Shown here: piece by piece, positions 5,775-44,587 of the stretch
Numbering within the stretch: position 1 is the stretch's first letter
Layout: each line of letters begins with the position of its first letter
NCBI GenBank assembly: GCA_030141585.1
Contig: JAQIFP010000032.1
Location: 2,468-47,054 of the forward strand
Direction of reading: 5' to 3'
DNA: 44,587 nt
From: Ophryocystis elektroscirrha
Taxonomy: Eukaryota; Apicomplexa; Conoidasida; Neogregarinorida; Ophryocystidae
Program-made: the position numbers and the translations under genes
The notes under the pieces: model-generated
What the model saw: only the letters and a program-made list of their open reading frames with translations
Database searches by the model: none
Told to the model about the DNA's origin: nothing

Positions 5775-6603
5775 TCACTCATCTGCTGGTACTGCGCGCC
5801 GCATTGTTTGCATATTTACAAAAATTGGAACACAGTATTTAACCCCTTTAGTTACAGGCAGAGCTCCATGTAATGTTCTTGTATCTGCTTCACCATTTAA
5901 AGACATATTTTTCCAGCAAATTGCCATTCCAGTTTTTGGCTTAAATTGAATCCCTATGGTAGAGAAGTAAGTTTCTCCACCTTCTTCAACATCTAAACAA
6001 AACAATTAAAAAAAAAAAAAGAAAAAAAGTTACCGTTCAAATAAATGATTGCTGAGTGAGACCTAAACACTCCATCATGGTGTATTTTGAATTCTTGACC
6101 CGGCAAGTATTTTAACAAATTAATTTCCTCTATGTTATCATAAGATAACTTGAATATTGAAGCTATTCGATTAATTAATTTATGCACCATTGTGACGCTG
6201 TTAGTATCCAATAAATTCTCAATCTTTGAGCTCAATGAAGTCCTATTACGACTTTCCACTGAAACATAATTGTTCTAATTGCAAATTATAATAATTTAAA
6301 ATTGCGTACAGGATTATCAGATGTGGCTCCAATAGAAGTTTTCGATTTATCCCACCCTGCTAAATTACCAAGTTGTATAATTTCTTCACATTCTTCCGGA
6401 GATAATAAATTATATACAACTTCTATATATGGCTCTGTATTCAATAAATATACATCCACAGGTATTTTTTTTTGATCTCCTTGTACTATTTCATAATGTC
6501 GGATTAAGCGCTGTGTTAATTTTTTAGTTGTATCTACAGGAATAGTTTCCTTGGATAAATTCCATCCTATAGCAGTTCTTCCAGTTTCAACAGAATTTGT
6601 CAT
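5775..6603 (-). CDS. Prolyl 4-hydroxylase, Fe(II)/2-oxoglutarate dioxygenase
   Basis: This family hydroxylates peptidyl proline using O2, Fe(II) and 2-oxoglutarate. Three exons are read on the minus strand. The N-terminal exon begins MTNSVETGRTAIGWN and includes YNLLSPEECEEIIQL, typical of the family's first helix. The middle exon carries GQEFKIHHDG (iron ligands of the HxD pair) and continues into YLND-VEEGGETYF, the highly conserved YLN..EGGET strand, across a 41-nt intron at 5993-6033. The last exon has TLHGALPVTKGVKYCVP: the distal His ligand and the Lys that binds 2-oxoglutarate. The first intron is best read as 35 nt, GT-AG. Total length is about 260 residues, with no obvious signal peptide from this ATG; the frame stays open upstream as far as about 6620, so a further 5' exon is possible. 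Its stop lies 25 bp from the RAD50 stop, tail to tail. Confidence 0.85.
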
Positions 6604-6881
6604 ACTGTCACGTATAGCTTTTTTTTTCTCCTGAATGTTAATAATATATATTTTTATTTATAATACTTTTTATACTACTATATATATATTATATATATAT
6701 ACTATATATATATTTATATTATTATTATTAGTATTATTATTATAATTAATGTAATAAATTAATGTATATAGAGATTAAAATATAATTTATGTATAAGTTA
6801 TATGTAAGGTATATAAGGTAAGCTATTAATCAATAAGATTAATGAATAAATAATTTGGTAGAGGAGGTTCGGTCCTTAAAA

Positions 6882-7955
6882 ATGTATTTTATAGATGTAT
6901 TTATTTTATTTTTTTTTTTTTGGAAATATATTGATTGTATAGCTGTACAAAAATCCGGAGTAGGAAGATGGATAAATGCCCATTCAGCGACGCACACCAT
7001 AGGATTTTATATAGAAAGGGAACTTGATGAAGAATTGAATATTGAAATATCTGTATCAATAATAAACGCTCTAAGAGTATTAGAAATGGGCTCAAATGTA
7101 AAGTTTAGACAAATAAGACAATTAGAAAAACACCATATAAAGCTTGATTTGACAGGAGACGAATGCATTACGTTCAATCATCCACGTTTTAATTACATTT
7201 CAATTGTGCTTGGTTCAGGCTGTTTTTCTTTAAGTTTAATTATCCATGAATTGCTACATGGACTTGAATTTTCTCATGAATTTAATAGAGCGGATTACAG
7301 CGACTATATAACGAAAAACACAACCGATATGGAATCCCCATGGAACCTTACAAAATACGATATTTATTCATCTTTGCACTACACAGTAAACAGTTTAGGA
7401 GCAACTTTATTACAGCCATTAAAGGAATTAAAAATTAATGAAACATTGGTCGGCAATTTTGCGTTACCAAGTACGTGTGATTGGTACGGTATCAATATTT
7501 TGTATCCTGGATACAAACTCCCTCCCGAGTGTGTTTTAAATGAACCTCCTGAACTTCCCAAACCCCGTGAAGAGTATCAAACGGATGATGATAACTGGGA
7601 AAAATGCATTTATACAAGAAATCTTAGCATTTTTGATGATACCTGTATTTATGAAAAAAGATACGGAAATCTCAATTTTATTCCTTTCGCAAATAAGTCT
7701 TTTTTTTCAGCAGCAACTATCAAACAACTTAAAAGGTGGTTTCGAGCTATTTACAAAAGGTTTCAAATTGGATTTTTAACACATATTGACCGTTATATAT
7801 GGGAAACCTTATTAGAACGTTTAGAAGAAGATTGTGAACAATCTTCTATTGATAAAAATCAAATGAAATTTGCAAAACTTATCTATTGTATGTGTGATCG
7901 ATTAAAAGATAAAACGATAACAGGAAAAGATTTTTTTGAGTGTCAATCTCGATAA
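6882..7955 (+). CDS. Secreted astacin-like zinc metalloprotease, copy 1
   Basis: Single exon of about 357 residues. The ATG at 6882 is preferred over upstream in-frame non-ATG codons because it begins a hydrophobic signal peptide (MYFIDVFILFFFFWKYIDCIA). The astacin zinc site is HELLHGLEFSHEFNRAD, with zinc ligands at about H122, H126 and H132, catalytic E123, and the family's HExxRxD continuation. The usual Gly before Phe is Glu here. The Met-turn, normally SxMHY, reads SSLHY, with Leu at about residue 165 in place of Met; the Tyr is retained. The end of the catalytic domain matches the family pattern LSxxDxxxINxLY as LPSTCDWYGINILYPG. A C-terminal region of about 130 residues has at least six Cys. 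Its closest relative in the window is the next gene. The substrate is unknown. Confidence 0.85.
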   Translation: MYFIDVFILFFFFWKYIDCIAVQKSGVGRWINAHSATHTIGFYIERELDEELNIEISVSIINALRVLEMGSNVKFRQIRQLEKHHIKLDLTGDECITFNHPRFNYISIVLGSGCFSLSLIIHELLHGLEFSHEFNRADYSDYITKNTTDMESPWNLTKYDIYSSLHYTVNSLGATLLQPLKELKINETLVGNFALPSTCDWYGINILYPGYKLPPECVLNEPPELPKPREEYQTDDDNWEKCIYTRNLSIFDDTCIYEKRYGNLNFIPFANKSFFSAATIKQLKRWFRAIYKRFQIGFLTHIDRYIWETLLERLEEDCEQSSIDKNQMKFAKLIYCMCDRLKDKTITGKDFFECQSR

Positions 7956-8032: not shown

Positions 8033-9058
8033 ATGTATACTTTAGTGTTTTTTATTTTATGTATAATAAGACGAATAAATGGTTCCTGTATAAACGACGC
8101 TTTTGGACTAAAGTGGTTTTCCCCACACAGTCTATTGCACACAATTGGTGTTAAATGGAACAATTTTTCTTTATCCCATAAAGAAACTGTACTACATAGT
8201 TTAAGAATATTGGAATTAAGTACAAATATTCGTTTTAGAGATAATAGGCTGTTTGAACGTAATATAATACGAATGAAATATAATACAAAAACGTGTATGA
8301 CTACATTTGATCATAACAAAGTATATATTGAGCTTAAATTAAGTTGTATTGATCAACTACCCATAATACATGAATTTTTGCATGCATTTGGATTTGCCCA
8401 TGAGTTTGGTAGAGCCGATGCCACTAAATATGTGGTAAACCTTAAAGATCATAAACAATGCAATTTGACGCTTACACCATATGACGCATATTCAATATCC
8501 CATTATGCTTTAGGCTTCAATAGTTATATAACCGATGAGTTGAAGAACCAGGGTGTAAATCAATCTTACGTAGGGTTTGGTATATTTCCAAGTTTTTGTG
8601 ATTATTACGCTCTTAATAACCTTTATCCGGGCAGTCTTTTTCCTCCTACGTGTATTTTAAATGAACATACGCCTTTTTATAGAGCTTATGAGCCTCAATA
8701 TGAATCCAGATGCCGACAATTACAACCTGATATTGTTCAAGAAAAATGCTATCTTAAGAAAAGATATGAAGAATTCGATTTTATTCCCTCCATCCGCTCT
8801 AAAATATTCTCTAATCCTCGTTTCGCTAATGATGAAGTATATGTAGTACGTTTTCTTGAAGGTATCAACCACAGGTTTTCTAAAGGCTATAAAACTCCAT
8901 TGGATCAATATCTATGGGAATTTCTATTGGAAATGTTGGAACAGGAATGCAAACATACTTCAAATAACGCCAAAATCAATAAAATAAGATCTTGTATATG
9001 TCATAATATAAACTATTCCAAAATGGAACCTAAAACATTAACTAGATGTTATGATTAA
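8033..9058 (+). CDS. Secreted astacin-like zinc metalloprotease, copy 2
   Basis: Single exon of 341 residues, colinear with the upstream gene and clearly its paralogue. The signal peptide is MYTLVFFILCIIRRINGS. The zinc site is HEFLHAFGFAHEFGRAD, with ligands at about H113, H117 and H123 and catalytic E114; the canonical Gly is retained, unlike copy 1. The Met-turn reads SISHY, with Ser at about residue 156 where the family has Met. The catalytic domain ends FPSFCDYYALNNLYPG. A C-terminal Cys-containing domain shares motifs with copy 1: EKCYLKKRYEEFDFIP versus TCIYEKRYGNLNFIP, and YLWEFLLEMLEQEC versus YIWETLLERLEEDC. Activity is plausible because ligands, Glu and Tyr are kept, but it is not certain with an altered Met-turn. 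Confidence 0.85.
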   Translation: MYTLVFFILCIIRRINGSCINDAFGLKWFSPHSLLHTIGVKWNNFSLSHKETVLHSLRILELSTNIRFRDNRLFERNIIRMKYNTKTCMTTFDHNKVYIELKLSCIDQLPIIHEFLHAFGFAHEFGRADATKYVVNLKDHKQCNLTLTPYDAYSISHYALGFNSYITDELKNQGVNQSYVGFGIFPSFCDYYALNNLYPGSLFPPTCILNEHTPFYRAYEPQYESRCRQLQPDIVQEKCYLKKRYEEFDFIPSIRSKIFSNPRFANDEVYVVRFLEGINHRFSKGYKTPLDQYLWEFLLEMLEQECKHTSNNAKINKIRSCICHNINYSKMEPKTLTRCYD

Positions 9059-30956: not shown

Positions 30957-33900
30957 ATGATGCTATATATATATATAACACTTCTTTTTTTGGGTTTATT
31001 TGAATCTAAACCCCAAAGTAGAAATATTGCTTTGCATACAGCAGAAAATGCTGAAATAACATTTATTATAAAAAATACGACTTACTTGTCATTTTATAAT
31101 CAGCCAATTACCGAAATAATTCAAAAAACGCACGACGTAGCTGTAAAGCACTACAAAGATGTTGAAATTAACTTAGTTACTTTTGGCTCTAGTGCAGCTA
31201 CCCTTAACAATAAACTGGGCCTCAAATATTGTCCCAGAAGAATCGCAAGTTTGAAAGCTAATAAGAAAGCGTTTTGGGCAAAAGTGAACTCGCTCAAATA
31301 CTCTGGGAATGAACCTGGAACCATTGAAGATTATTTTGAAGGAGTACAATTGGCGGTCAAATCTTTAAATGCAAAATGCTGTAATAAAAATATTGCTAAA
31401 TTTATTTTCACAATATCTGATTCCCAAGATATACACGAAAAGAATAATGATCGATCTGCTGGACAAAGTATTCCATGCACTAAGCCTCATTTTTCCGAAT
31501 CAGAAATTACTCAAATAATGCATTCGAGTGATGCTAAATATGTCCTCTTATGTCCCAGTCCAAATGTATTAAAACGTTATTTGAATATGTTTAATAATGT
31601 AAATATGAAATTTGTAGAAGTAATTCAATTGAATAATATATCGTCAACCGTAGCAGGTGACATAATTAAAGATGGAGCAATAGCCAAATATCCACATAAT
31701 GTATATGTCCCAATTGCTCCTCCCGGCTTAAATAATAGATACCACATTGTTTGGAATTCCTCGAAAAGTTTAATTCCAATTCATCCTGATGTAGAGAGAT
31801 CACCATTAATGCATAATTTAATATCAGATGTCAAAAGTTATGATAAAGTAGTAAAAAATGAAGACTTAAAGAAGACAGTAAATCGAGCGATGCAAAAAAC
31901 CGTTATTGCCGATTGTCTTCTATCTTATGAAATAAAACATAATATGATGCATTATCCTGTAGAAGATTCAAAATCACTTAGTGAGGAGGAATTAGATGAA
32001 TTAATATTAAAAAAACATGGAAAGTATCTTCTAGCTAGAATAACAGATGAAGATAGAGCTTTGTACCTGAAAGGAGAACTTAGCTTAGAAAAAAAAAGAC
32101 TTCGAATTATGCATAAATTACTTTCGTGCTATGGTCTAGATAAGCCTCTTCCATCTTATGATAATAAATCCACTTTATTGCCGTATGTATATTCGAGAGG
32201 TCCTCAAAATTATTGGTATACGACTGATACATCTCTTCGCTCAAAAGCAGTGGAATTAATTATTCAAACATATTCCAATTTCGTGAAACCAGAGATTCCA
32301 AACGCTGAAAATTTATCACCAGTACAATTAAATGTTATATTTGCACATATACATAACTTTTTCCAAGACTATATCAAACCTAAGCACGAATATACGGAAA
32401 TCATAAATCCCGTTCTTCGGAATTATAATGATTACTTATTTGCATTTAACAATCCAAACGCGAATAAGAACCAGGTAGTAAGCGTACCTATTCCTGACTC
32501 GAGCATAACTAATATACAAAAAATACCACCTCACCATTTTAGTAACAACTTCCCTCTTTTAACTAGTTCAAACTTTGGTGTTAAACAAATGACTGAATTA
32601 AATAAAATAGTAAAGGATGCTCAAGTACAGCATTCTTTGAATGTAATAAACGACCCAAATGCTACGTTCGTACCTGAAGTCGTTACCGTAAATAATTCAA
32701 AAATCTTGCGAAAACCAGTAACTGTAAATGAATCGAAACCGGTTCAGTTAAAATCTTCTAATACTGAGCCAGTTCCAACTCAATTAACTTTTCCTTATAA
32801 TATTCCAAAGGGTCAACCAATTTTTGAACCTCAAATAGTTCCAATGAATGAACAAAAAGTTCTTCAAAACACATTACCTGTAATTGAACCGGAACCGGTT
32901 CAAGTAAAGAATCCACCTGCTGAACCAGTTACTAACTCACCAGTTTTGCCTTATGATGTACAAGTAGAACAACAACCAATTTTTGAACCTCAAATAGTTT
33001 CAATGAATGAGCAAAAAGTTCTTCAGAACACATTACCTGTAAATGAACCGGAACCGGTTCAAGTAAAGAATCCACCTGCTGAACCAGTTACTAATTCACC
33101 AGTTTTGCCTTATGATGTACAAGTAAAACAACAACCAATGTTTGAACCTCAAATTGTTTCAATGAACGATCAAAATATCGTTCAAAATGCATTACCTATA
33201 AATGAGCAAGAACTGGTTCAAGTACAGGCTTCAACTATTGAACCAGTAACTGATTCACCACTTTTGCCTTATAATGTACAACAGGGACAGCAACTGATGT
33301 TTGAACCCCAGATAATTCCAATAAACGAACAAAATATTGTTCAAGGAACATTGCCTATGAATCAGCAAGAACCGCTTCAAGTGCAAACTCCAGTTATTCA
33401 ACCAGTTACTGATTCACCAGTTTTGCCGTATAATGTACAAAAAGGACAGCAACCAGTGTTTGAGCCTCAAATAGTTCCAATGAATGAACAAAATATTGTT
33501 CAAAGTACATTGCCTATAATTGAGCAAGAACCGGTTCAAGTACAGGCTTCAACTATTGAACCAATAACAGATTCACCAGTTTTGGCTTATAATGTACAAG
33601 AAGGACAACAACCAATGTTCGAACCTCAAATAGTTCCAATGAACGAGCAAAATGTTGTTCAAAATACATTACCTATGAATGAGCAAGAACCGGTTCAAAT
33701 ACAGGCTTCAACTATTGAACCAGCATTTAATTCACCAGTTTTGCCATTTAATATAAAAGAAAAACAACAAACAATGTTTGATCCTCAAATAGTTCCAATG
33801 AACGAACAAGATACTGTTCAAAATACATTACCTATGTATGAACAGGAACCAGTTCCATTTGAAACTTTGAATGTTGATTCTAAACCACCAGTTCTGCCTT

Positions 33901-34832
33901 ATTATCTACAAATAGGAAAACAAGCAACGTTTGAGCCTAATTTAGTTCCAATGAACGTACAAGAGCCAACATACCTGCCAAGATATCCATCGGATATAGA
34001 AGAATCTATTAAAGTTACAGACAGTGTCCGAACACGTGAAATAGATTCAGTAAATACTTTACTACCAGGAAATAACCCTGAAACAAATTTCAATGTTTTG
34101 CCACCCAATGGATCGAATCCCGTTTCCGTATTACAACCAATGTTCGATTTATCTGAACCACTTCAACGAACAATACCCTCAATTAATTCAGAACAAGACA
34201 ATGAATTGTTTCCAGTGATAGAAGCTTCAAAAGAGAGAAACATACCTCTTTATTTAGACGTTATTAGTGACGAATTACCTAATTATGCTCCATATATGAA
34301 AAAATCTAGCACAGTTCCGTTTACTACTGAAACGTCATTTGAAACATCTCTTCTAACGAATGACTCAAATACCACAACAGGAAAACAAGATGAAGTTAAA
34401 ACTGTGGGAATTGTGAATCCTACTGATGTAATTGAAGACAACACTAATAATGATTCTTCGAGCAACGCAATAGATGAACCACTTCCTGAGTCCAAAGTGC
34501 TTCCAATTGAAGACAAAAGACAACTTGATACGACATTCCAAACTAAAACTGGTAGATTAAATTCGCAAGATACTGAGTCCACCTCTACAAAAACATCCGA
34601 AAAGTCCTCTAAACCTGGAAGCCGTAACAGAAATGTGGCGATTGGAACAGCCGCTTCAGCTGTTGTTCTTGCTGTATTAGCAGGAGCTTATACGATTTAC
34701 AGAAAAATACCATTCAAGAGATCTAACGAAGAAATAAATGTGACAGAAAACACATATGAAACTTCTACAACTACTAAAAAAGAAGAAGACTATGACCAAA
34801 CTATCAAGTTCAATGAAGCTGCTTATGTCTAA
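30957..34832 (+). CDS. Single-exon type I membrane adhesin with integrin-beta-I/VWA-like domain and 53-residue repeats
   Basis: 1291 residues in one exon. The signal peptide is MMLYIYITLLFLGLFES. Residues about 30-240 resemble the integrin beta I-like (VWA) fold: strand EITFIIK, then VEINLVTFGSSAATLNN, WAKVNSLKYSGNEPGTIEDY, FEGVQLAVKSL, IAKFIFTISDS and VEVIQLNNISSTVAGDIIKD, with paired Cys. The metal-binding DxSxS position reads KNTTY, so the MIDAS looks degenerate. Residues about 320-480 are helical. Residues about 565-1010 are about nine repeats containing FEPQIVPMNEQ, TLPMNEQEPVQ and SPVLPYNVQ. Residues about 1226-1250 (NVAIGTAASAVVLAVLAGAY) are a TM helix with small residues like rhomboid-cleaved apicomplexan adhesins. 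The tail of about 41 residues ends FNEAAYV. The domain call is by eye; an adhesive role is inferred. Confidence 0.75.
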   Translation: MMLYIYITLLFLGLFESKPQSRNIALHTAENAEITFIIKNTTYLSFYNQPITEIIQKTHDVAVKHYKDVEINLVTFGSSAATLNNKLGLKYCPRRIASLKANKKAFWAKVNSLKYSGNEPGTIEDYFEGVQLAVKSLNAKCCNKNIAKFIFTISDSQDIHEKNNDRSAGQSIPCTKPHFSESEITQIMHSSDAKYVLLCPSPNVLKRYLNMFNNVNMKFVEVIQLNNISSTVAGDIIKDGAIAKYPHNVYVPIAPPGLNNRYHIVWNSSKSLIPIHPDVERSPLMHNLISDVKSYDKVVKNEDLKKTVNRAMQKTVIADCLLSYEIKHNMMHYPVEDSKSLSEEELDELILKKHGKYLLARITDEDRALYLKGELSLEKKRLRIMHKLLSCYGLDKPLPSYDNKSTLLPYVYSRGPQNYWYTTDTSLRSKAVELIIQTYSNFVKPEIPNAENLSPVQLNVIFAHIHNFFQDYIKPKHEYTEIINPVLRNYNDYLFAFNNPNANKNQVVSVPIPDSSITNIQKIPPHHFSNNFPLLTSSNFGVKQMTELNKIVKDAQVQHSLNVINDPNATFVPEVVTVNNSKILRKPVTVNESKPVQLKSSNTEPVPTQLTFPYNIPKGQPIFEPQIVPMNEQKVLQNTLPVIEPEPVQVKNPPAEPVTNSPVLPYDVQVEQQPIFEPQIVSMNEQKVLQNTLPVNEPEPVQVKNPPAEPVTNSPVLPYDVQVKQQPMFEPQIVSMNDQNIVQNALPINEQELVQVQASTIEPVTDSPLLPYNVQQGQQLMFEPQIIPINEQNIVQGTLPMNQQEPLQVQTPVIQPVTDSPVLPYNVQKGQQPVFEPQIVPMNEQNIVQSTLPIIEQEPVQVQASTIEPITDSPVLAYNVQEGQQPMFEPQIVPMNEQNVVQNTLPMNEQEPVQIQASTIEPAFNSPVLPFNIKEKQQTMFDPQIVPMNEQDTVQNTLPMYEQEPVPFETLNVDSKPPVLPYYLQIGKQATFEPNLVPMNVQEPTYLPRYPSDIEESIKVTDSVRTREIDSVNTLLPGNNPETNFNVLPPNGSNPVSVLQPMFDLSEPLQRTIPSINSEQDNELFPVIEASKERNIPLYLDVISDELPNYAPYMKKSSTVPFTTETSFETSLLTNDSNTTTGKQDEVKTVGIVNPTDVIEDNTNNDSSSNAIDEPLPESKVLPIEDKRQLDTTFQTKTGRLNSQDTESTSTKTSEKSSKPGSRNRNVAIGTAASAVVLAVLAGAYTIYRKIPFKRSNEEINVTENTYETSTTTKKEEDYDQTIKFNEAAYV
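32650..33985 (+). repeat. 159-bp in-frame tandem repeats in the adhesin gene
   Basis: The anchor ttt-gaa-cct occurs at 32823 and 32982, and the same 159-nt step continues to about 33927. Seven copies are clear, with a diverged copy at each end. The first two full copies are almost identical over about 150 nt; later ones differ at many positions. Confidence 0.9.
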
Positions 34833-34945
34833 AACATCAAGCTAAAATGCTTGTTTAAAAAAAAAAAAAAAAAAAATAGTTTTTTTTTCTGTGCATTGAG
34901 TTTGTTTTTTTTCAAACAAATTTGAACTTTCAACATATTATTAGT
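34833..34945. other. Convergent spacer with A and T homopolymers
   Basis: 113 bp between the adhesin stop and the SART3-like stop. It contains a run of about 20 A at 34857-34876, followed by T runs. Poly-A signals of both genes probably lie here. Confidence 0.4.
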
Positions 34946-43221: not shown

Positions 43222-44587
43222 CATTTTACTAAATTTATTTTCTATAAATAAATTTAGACTCTTGGTTGTGTAATTTTGTATAGTCTTACATGTACATATA
43301 TAAACCTTCATAACTTTTTGAAAAAAAATTATAAATTTTTGGTGTTTTTAGACTGTAATACAACACCCTCAACGAATAAGAGCTCAAATATTCACAACAA
43401 ACCTACTTTCAAGTCTACTGAAATGCTCACCGAAAAAATCTACCGTAATGAAGCAATAAACGAAAAATCGCAGCCTGTTTCATCTTTGCTTCATAAAAAT
43501 TCAGGTAATGATAATTGATTACTGGTAACTTTTATAACTAGAAACAAAAAAAAAAAACAATGGCGATATTTCTCACCATAATAATAAAGAAGCTAATCAA
43601 CCGCCCAAATCTACTTTTGAGGCCGACTCGAATAAATTCGAGTCTAAATTAGATTCAAATACTGTATCCACTATAATGTCAAATATAATGCCTAATTCAA
43701 TTTCAATGTCTGAAAAATTAATCAAAGTTAGCGCAAGTAATGACAAGTCTGACAATTTGCATAAATCTCTAGCTTTACTTATTGAAAATAAAGGTAGATA
43801 AATGATTTAGAAAATATTTTTAGAATTAAAAAAAAACCCAAATTCAACCTTTAATAATGATTCTGTTTTGTTGTCCAAAAATGTACCTGAAATAAAAAAT
43901 GAAGAAGAAAGGAATTTAGGTAGCATAACTTCAAATTTTAAATCTGAATTTAAAAATATAAAAGAACGAGTAATTGAAGCTAAACCAGAGCCAGTTATTG
44001 AAGCTAAACCAGAGCCAGTTATTGAAGCTAAACCAGAAGCAGTTCTTCAAGCTAAACCAGAACCAATTCTTCAAGCTAAACAAGAACCAGTTCTTGAAGC
44101 TAAACCAGAGCCAGTTATTGAAGTTAAACTAGAGCCAGTTATTGAAGCTAAACCAGAGCCAGTTATTGAAGCTAAACCAGAGCCAGTTATTGAAGCTAAA
44201 CCAGAGCCAGTTATTGAAGCTAAACTAGAACCAGTTGTTGAAGCTAATGCAGAGCAAGTTATTGAAGCTAATGCAGAGCAAGTTATTGAAGCTAAACCAG
44301 AAGCAGTTCTTGAAGCTAAACCAGAACTAGTTCTTCAAACTAAACCAGAACCAATTCTTCAAGCTAAACCAGAACCGGTTCTCCAGGCTAAACAAGAACC
44401 AGTTCTTGAAGCTAAACCAGAGCCAGTTATTGAAGTTAAACTAGAGCCAGTTATTGAAGTTAAACCAGAGCCAGTTATTGAAGCTAAACCAGAGCCAGTT
44501 ATTGAAGCTAAACCAGAGCCAGTTATTGAAGCTAAACCAGAGCCAGTTATTGAAGCTAAACCAGAGCCAGTTATTGAAGCTAAACCA
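42206..44587 (+). CDS. Basic protein with long EAKPEPVI octapeptide repeat array, 3' end outside window
   Basis: The ATG at 42206 opens a strongly basic N-terminus (MKKSTKAKKSKKNKRAKC) resembling a nuclear or nucleolar targeting segment rather than a signal peptide. Exon 1 ends at 42313 (intron 42314-42344, 31 nt). Exon 2, 42345-42420, encodes AEHEFIQLLACNFSKNSSK. A 0.93-kb (TA)-rich intron follows. Exon 3 is 43352-43504 (DCNTTPSTNKSSNIHNKPTF). Exon 4 is about 43542-43793 (intron 43794-43823, 30 nt). The last visible exon, from 43824, is Asn/Lys/Ser-rich and then becomes an uninterrupted array of an 8-residue unit, EAKPEPVI and variants, from about 43970 to the window end. The introns after exons 2, 3 and 4 are phase 1, and frames join without stops. 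No known domain is recognised; the repeats imply an extended, disordered, acidic/Pro region. Confidence 0.65.
42480..43240. repeat. (TA)n/TATGTATGTCAGTATTA minisatellite in a large intron
   Basis: Intron of the 42206 gene. Several copies of a unit around tatgtcagtattatatatac, each followed by (TA)n and tttttatcatta, occur between about 42955 and 43200. No coding signal. Confidence 0.7.
43970..44587 (+). repeat. 24-bp coding tandem repeat, at least 25 copies
   Basis: The unit gctaaaccagagccagttat plus tgaa is repeated in frame to the end of the window. Variants (caagaaccagttcttgaagc, ctagagccagttattgaagt) form a higher-order block that appears at about 44035-44150 and again at about 44295-44460. 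Confidence 0.95.

What the first reader, a model, noticed from the sequence alone, without database searches (positions are those of the whole stretch)
30957..34832. Integrin-beta-I/VWA-like single-exon adhesin with TRAP-like layout
The ectodomain resembles the integrin beta I-like domain (GFGSF-like strand, SGN...E loop, IVFSTD-like strand, terminal SSN helix) more than the VWA of TRAP proteins. It is combined with repeats, a small-residue TM helix and a short acidic tail ending in Tyr-Val. No thrombospondin repeat is seen. If the organism is an apicomplexan relative, this would be an unusual gliding or host-attachment protein and the best candidate for an undescribed surface system here.
Basis: partly seen in the sequence, partly recalled or inferred. 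Interest (0 to 1): 0.75.

Follow-up and report, generated by a model that had tools for sequence, protein, structure and literature searches.

The report
Orphan apicomplexan adhesin-like membrane protein
A small apicomplexan parasite genome encodes a secreted-looking membrane protein with no relative found so far, whose tip weakly resembles the ligand-binding domain of animal integrins and whose layout resembles the parasites' gliding adhesins, but the resemblance is not yet proven.

Summary
In detail: window 30957-34832 (+) is one open frame of 1291 codons with clear coding signal. It reads as a signal peptide, a ~215-residue N-terminal domain, a P/Q-rich stalk with 6.6 copies of a 53-residue repeat, one small-residue transmembrane helix and a 43-residue tail ending AAYV. 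No thrombospondin repeat was found in it and no second copy in its 8.0-Mb genome. That genome looks apicomplexan (AP2 domains; a Notch/TSP1/Sushi gene like CpTSP2/PgTSP2).
The fold claim is only partly supported. Sequence tests against Pfam, PDB and integrin beta 1-3 are not significant (best VWA_2, E 0.013-0.068; the reversed domain scores higher on the beta profile). Two searches of 5.8 billion proteins gave no homologue. Both AlphaFold models are poor. One has the VWA element order, and 31 of the 50 Foldseek rows shown are integrin beta chains; the other finds none. Cysteine positions and loop lengths, chosen by eye, lean to beta-I over alpha-I.
No DxSxS MIDAS motif and no tail tryptophan: TRAP-family membership fails. 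Best reading: a TRAP-like, lineage-specific adhesin with a degenerate VWA/beta-I-like head, possibly motor-linked (inferred).

The parts
30957..34832 (+). single open frame, 1291 aa, TRAP-like type I membrane protein
   Evidence: open frame, coding composition and repeat dN<dS, only match in its genome
30957..31010 (+). signal peptide, about residues 1-18 (MMLYIYITLLFLGLFESK)
   Evidence: read by eye from the translation, hydrophobic core; no predictor was run
31050..31691 (+). VWA/integrin beta-I-like domain, residues 32-245
   Evidence: VWA_2 best Pfam match, E 0.013-0.068, under cut-off; element order bA-a1-bB-bC-a3-bD-a5-bE-a6-bF-a7 (my labels) in a poor model; Foldseek rows led by integrin beta chains
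31071..31091 (+). loop after the first strand, residues 39-45 (KNTTYLS), where a MIDAS DxSxS would lie; no Asp; carries a glycosylation sequon (N40)
   Evidence: no DxSxS or D.[ST].[ST] anywhere in residues 19-267; sequon scan; position
31302..31322 (+). SGNEPGT, residues 116-122: like the integrin beta SGN...PE loop; T122 could be a MIDAS Thr
   Evidence: equivalence by eye
31419..31421 (+). Asp155 (FIFTISD), candidate for the MIDAS Asp after strand D
   Evidence: equivalence by eye
31377..31382 (+). Cys141-Cys142, about where integrin beta 1-3 have a Cys after the a3 helix
   Evidence: equivalence by eye
31476..31478 (+). Cys174 (IPC), about where integrin beta 1-3 have the DGQC/DGRC Cys in the bD-bE connection
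   Evidence: equivalence by eye
31758..32654 (+). middle region, residues 268-566, no recognised domain
   Evidence: Pfam on residues 268-528: 0 families at E up to 10; NCBIfam only chance-level, E 0.024 and 0.047
32655..33968 (+). P/Q-rich repeat stalk, units of 53 residues; clear array 32814-33855, worn copies on both sides
33969..34634 (+). S/T-rich juxtamembrane stalk
   Evidence: composition of residues 1001-1222
34635..34700 (+). transmembrane helix, residues 1227-1248, small residues (AIGTAASA) in its outer half: possible rhomboid site (inferred)
   Evidence: hydropathy; rhomboid matches on two contigs of the genome
34701..34829 (+). cytoplasmic tail, 43 residues, ends FNEAAYV; no Trp, no NPxY; one YxxPhi (YRKI) at the membrane edge

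Best explanation
A secreted type I surface adhesin of a gregarine-like apicomplexan. Shown from the sequence: one open frame, a hydrophobic N terminus, one transmembrane segment, a repeat stalk, a short acidic tail, no TSP1 found, no second copy found. Inferred, with my odds: the N-terminal ~215 residues fold as a VWA domain (0.75), of the integrin beta-I rather than alpha-I kind (0.4); the domain sits at the tip of an extended P/Q-rich stalk and binds host or substrate protein with a worn, probably metal-poor MIDAS face; the protein is shed by a rhomboid cut in the outer half of the helix; the tail couples to the parasite cytoskeleton through terminal aromatic residues rather than the TRAP tryptophan (0.3). 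In this reading it works like a TRAP without being one.
For: Layout and selection on the protein. VWA_2 is the best Pfam family for the domain (E 0.048-0.068 for four overlapping cuts, 0.056 for residues 49-245, 0.013 for residues 27-168, none for 67-245). The model of residues 27-245 has the VWA order of elements, and 31 of the 50 Foldseek rows shown are integrin beta chains, best E 3.8e-3, with no integrin alpha chain among them. The bD-to-bE spacing is 46 residues against 60-62 in beta 1-3 and 23 in alpha-L; Cys141/142 and Cys174 lie about where beta 1-3 have Cys, while the alpha-L I domain has none (landmarks by eye). Apicomplexan-looking genome: 9 AP2 matches (5 over the cut-off), a Notch/TSP1/Sushi gene with a transmembrane segment, an RCC1-like/TSP1-like gene with a transmembrane segment, rhomboids.
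Confidence: 0.5

Rival explanations
1. A repeat-rich surface or oocyst-wall antigen whose N-terminal domain has some other fold; the integrin look is chance.
For: No significant sequence match; the reversed domain beats the real one on the integrin beta profile; weak chance matches to other families reach the same E-values; model 1 shows no VWA.
Against: The 50 Foldseek rows for model 2 are mostly VWA-type chains (46 by my reading), and VWA_2 is independently the best Pfam family.
Confidence: 0.25
2. A diverged alpha-I-type VWA of the TRAP/MIC2 kind that lost its TSR and MIDAS; the beta-I features are convergent.
For: The solved apicomplexan I domains, of TRAP and MIC2, resemble alpha-I much more than beta-I (PMC7351488, passages); TRAP-like layout; a Thr lies where alpha-I domains carry the MIDAS Thr (by eye).
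Against: Long bD-bE connection with a Cys, and Cys after a3, as in beta-I; no integrin alpha chain among the 50 Foldseek rows shown; no tail Trp.
Confidence: 0.2
3. A canonical TRAP-family protein.
For: Hydrophobic N terminus, single helix, acidic distal tail.
Against: No Trp in the tail, no TSP1 found, no DxSxS in the domain.
Confidence: 0.05

Closest known systems
TRAP family (Plasmodium TRAP, Toxoplasma MIC2)
   Same: signal peptide, N-terminal VWA-like domain (likely), stalk, single transmembrane helix with small residues, short acidic tail
   Different: no TSP1 found, no MIDAS DxSxS, no subterminal Trp, long P/Q repeat stalk, beta-I-leaning rather than alpha-I-leaning head
integrin beta subunit (beta-I domain)
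   Same: order of strands and helices in one poor model, several loop lengths and Cys positions (by eye), Foldseek rows
   Different: no other integrin beta domain found by Pfam, no NPxY in the tail and no DxSxS, no FG-GAP (integrin alpha) match in the genome
Pactolus (integrin beta-like protein)
   Same: its I domain is among the Foldseek rows (2iue, rank 16); an integrin beta-like domain with an altered metal site (recalled)
   Different: metazoan protein (recalled); metal sites were not compared here
WARP (Plasmodium VWA protein)
   Same: VWA without TSP1 (recalled)
   Different: soluble (recalled); this protein has a transmembrane helix
CpTSP2/PgTSP2/TGME49_223480 (Notch, TSP1, Sushi)
   Same: the same genome holds such a gene on contig C41, with a transmembrane segment and a tail ending YNGMY
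   Different: unlike ectodomain: Notch, TSP1 and Sushi domains

Membership tests
TRAP family | signal peptide | tested here: inconclusive
   hydrophobic core read by eye and by hydropathy; no predictor run
TRAP family | one or more VWA and/or TSP1 domains | tested here: inconclusive
   no TSP1; VWA_2 E 0.013-0.068, below cut-off; Foldseek rows of one of two poor models favour VWA
TRAP family | MIDAS motif in the VWA domain | tested here: not met
   no D.[ST].[ST] in residues 19-267; KNTTYLS where it would lie; T122 and D155 could be the other two residues. MIDAS present in all VWA domains of apicomplexan TRAP and TRP proteins identified so far: PMC9019593, passages
TRAP family | single transmembrane helix near the C terminus | tested here: met
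   one stretch with 19-residue hydropathy above 1.3
TRAP family | acidic cytoplasmic tail | tested here: met
   distal 37 residues net -5; the whole 43 only net -2
TRAP family | subterminal tryptophan in the tail | tested here: not met
   no Trp in the tail; hallmark per PMC9019593, passages
TRAP family | rhomboid cleavage | not testable with these tools
   small residues in the outer half of the helix and rhomboid genes only make it possible
integrin beta | beta-I domain | tested here: inconclusive
integrin beta | MIDAS motif | tested here: not met
   no D.[ST].[ST] in residues 19-267
integrin beta | NPxY motif in the tail | tested here: not met
integrin beta | other integrin beta domains (PSI, hybrid, EGF) | tested here: inconclusive
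   Pfam: 0 families in the full length at E<=1; diverged domains could be missed
integrin heterodimer | integrin alpha partner with FG-GAP propeller | tested here: inconclusive
   no FG-GAP match in the genome in an exon-by-exon search; 6 of 14 controls rang

The most novel reading that the evidence does not exclude
The first single-chain apicomplexan adhesin with an integrin beta-I-type head, standing in for the alpha-I-type VWA of TRAP/MIC2 in a genome where no Pfam VWA (PF00092) exon was found, and coupled to the cytoskeleton by a tryptophan-free tail. That would mean that beta-I-like heads arose, or were kept, in apicomplexans.
Probability: 0.18. Interest if true: 0.75.

Novelty: new variant of a known kind. 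Interest (0 to 1): 0.45.

Why it matters
The TRAPs described so far seem genus- or species-specific, and VWA domains appear to be absent from Cryptosporidium, which glides (PMC9250747, passages), so what grips the substrate outside the model species is open. A TSR-free, tryptophan-free membrane protein with a VWA-like head would be a testable candidate. It would also show that metal-site loss and a beta-I-like topology can occur in an apicomplexan adhesin, whereas TRAP and MIC2 resemble alpha-I domains (PMC7351488, passages).

Tried and rejected
Homologues: two searches of 5.8 billion proteins, with words from residues 1-500 (candidates of about 710-2259 aa) and 24-262 (about 275-875 aa), gave none at E up to 1 and 10. 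The third search went to the importin-alpha exon to place the organism and did not place it. In the own genome only the gene itself matched.

Integrin_beta (PF00362) gave nothing in the genome, but its control was silent too, so that is no evidence of absence; AMA-1 likewise. VWA (PF00092) gave 0 matches while 11 of 14 controls rang; the gene in hand was not found by it either. VWA_2 rang once, on contig C1, not at this gene.

Sequence comparison with human integrin beta 1, 2, 3 and alpha-L: not significant, or for beta-2 only. Landmark spacings were chosen by eye after the fact and are biased for that reason.

Papers: integrin beta plus gregarine, 0 held. The listed titles and abstract openings (20, 15, 15, 10 and 10 rows of 66, 50, 26, 17 and 58 papers) show none on a beta-I-type apicomplexan adhesin; only open-licence PMC papers are held, so I do not claim that none is in print.

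Not run: signal-peptide predictor, tail profile search, any species identification by rRNA.

Full report
WHAT IS THERE. Window 30957-34832 (+) is one open frame of 1291 codons. It is coding: a frame of that length has a chance of about 10^-42 at its own composition, GC by codon position is 0.48/0.32/0.22 (0.41/0.31/0.24 for the first 600 codons) against flatter, AT-rich flanks, and 15 of 15 pairs of the six in-register repeat units have dN below dS (means 0.187 and 0.341). From the N terminus: a hydrophobic stretch read as a signal peptide (no predictor run; its best 19-residue hydropathy is 1.26, its 11-residue core 2.49), a domain of about 215 residues (5 Cys in residues 19-267), a middle region without a recognised domain, 6.6 copies of a 53-residue P/Q/V/E-rich repeat (32814-33855, period 159) with worn copies on both sides, an S/T-rich stalk, one transmembrane helix (about residues 1227-1248) and a 43-residue tail ending FNEAAYV. 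Pfam finds no family in the full-length protein at E up to 1.

WHERE IT IS. The window lies in a genome of 8,008,172 bases in 118 contigs; GC along the window is 20-34% in 2-kb steps. It looks apicomplexan by content: nine AP2 matches at E up to 0.001, five over the family cut-off, and a gene on contig C41 with 13 of the genome's 14 TSP_1 matches at E up to 1, Notch matches in two exons and Sushi in one, a transmembrane segment and a tail ending YNGMY (taken as one gene by eye). That is the domain set described for CpTSP2/PgTSP2 (PMC9250747, passages) and TGME49_223480 (Sushi, Notch, 16 TSP1; PMC9218915, passages). The fourteenth TSP_1 match, below the cut-off, is a gene on C2 with an RCC1-like match (E 2e-12), a spondin-type TSP1 match (E 9e-7), both under their curated cut-offs, a transmembrane segment and a short tail. 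Size and GC recall the neogregarine Ophryocystis elektroscirrha, 8.6-8.9 Mb and 27% GC (PMC10210345, abstract, outline and passages). The SSU search did not complete, so the species is not identified and gregarine kinship is inference.

IS THE HEAD A VWA OR BETA-I DOMAIN. For: (1) Among 24,736 Pfam models VWA_2 is the best match to the domain, at E 0.048-0.068 for four overlapping cuts (residues 19-267, 20-258, 30-248, 27-245), 0.056 for residues 49-245 and 0.013 for residues 27-168; residues 67-245 gave none. All are under the cut-off, and the match covers strand B to strand D only. (2) An AlphaFold model of residues 27-245 (pLDDT 41, pTM 0.37, single sequence) has the element order of a VWA domain. 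Of its first 50 Foldseek rows against 350,542 PDB chains, 31 are integrin beta chains by title and chain letter (Pactolus, 2iue, counted), 15 I read as other VWA chains by title or recalled chain identity (VWF A1, 26S proteasome, TFIIH, an NHEJ complex, ITIH1, CMG2, C3bB), and 4 are others; rank 1 is integrin beta-1, E 3.8e-3; 418 chains match at E up to 10, none at 0.001. (3) The landmarks of integrin beta-1 occur in the same order at spacings 37, 45, 15, 18, 23, 23, 24, 8 against 37, 61, 15, 16, 26, 34, 23, 7. The bD-to-bE distance is 46 residues, against 60-62 in beta 1-3 and 23 in alpha-L. Cys141/142 and Cys174 sit about where beta 1-3 have Cys; the alpha-L I domain has none. These landmarks were picked by eye.

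THE METAL SITE. No D.[ST].[ST] occurs in residues 19-267. Strand A is followed by KNTTYLS (residues 39-45); T122 and D155 could be the remaining MIDAS residues (by eye). N40 is in a glycosylation sequon. VWA domains of apicomplexan TRAP and TRP proteins identified so far all have MIDAS (PMC9019593, passages), so this would be an exception. MIDAS mutants of Plasmodium TRAP still glide though they lose infectivity (same passages), so an adhesin without MIDAS is not absurd.

HOW IT MAY WORK. Shown: layout, no second copy found, selection on the repeats, genome setting, rhomboid matches on two contigs. Inferred: delivery to the surface, binding by the head at the end of the stalk, rhomboid shedding, and tail coupling. 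The tail ends with an aromatic residue near the C terminus, as do those of the C41 (YNGMY) and C2 (TFNFE) proteins; that these act in place of the TRAP tryptophan is speculation. A YxxPhi (YRKI) lies at the membrane edge, perhaps too close to the membrane to sort.

WHAT IT IS NOT. Under the TRAP definition in PMC9019593 (passages) the acidic tail and its tryptophan are decisive; the tryptophan is absent. It is not an integrin beta subunit: no NPxY, no DxSxS, no other integrin domain found, no FG-GAP match in the genome. No relative turned up in the searched protein collection, within the limits of that search (shared 5-residue words, length bounds).

VERDICT. I rate it a new variant of a known kind, interest 0.45. 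An alignment of orthologues would settle the fold.

Noticed in passing
window 6882-7955 and 8033-9058 (+): Two tandem astacin-type metallopeptidase genes (Pfam E 5e-12 and 2e-12, over cut-off) with HExxHxxxxxH and hydrophobic N termini (by eye); a third match on contig C2. A paper search with astacin, gregarine, apicomplexa, genome (3 of 4 terms) listed 10 of 240 papers, none of the 10 holding the word astacin.
   Followed up: partly
G000:C41 about 38000-56400 (L017, L021): Large multi-exon Notch/TSP1/Sushi gene with a transmembrane segment, CpTSP2/PgTSP2-like, tail ends YNGMY.
   Followed up: partly
G000:C2:136378-138420 (L018:2379-4421): RCC1-like repeats + spondin-type TSP1 + transmembrane segment + short tail; VAGSIGG stretch in the helix looks rhomboid-cleavable. 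May correspond to TGME49_277910 (recalled, untested).
   Followed up: partly
window 5778-6657 (-): 2OG-Fe(II) oxygenase-like exon (E 0.0025, under cut-off), prolyl 4-hydroxylase-like by eye.
   Followed up: no
window 43811-44587 (+): Repetitive open frame running off the window end, possibly another repeat-rich protein.
   Followed up: no
window 34857-34876: A run of 20 A right after the stop codon of the gene, followed by a T run: a simple genomic run or a worn transcript-like end.
   Followed up: no
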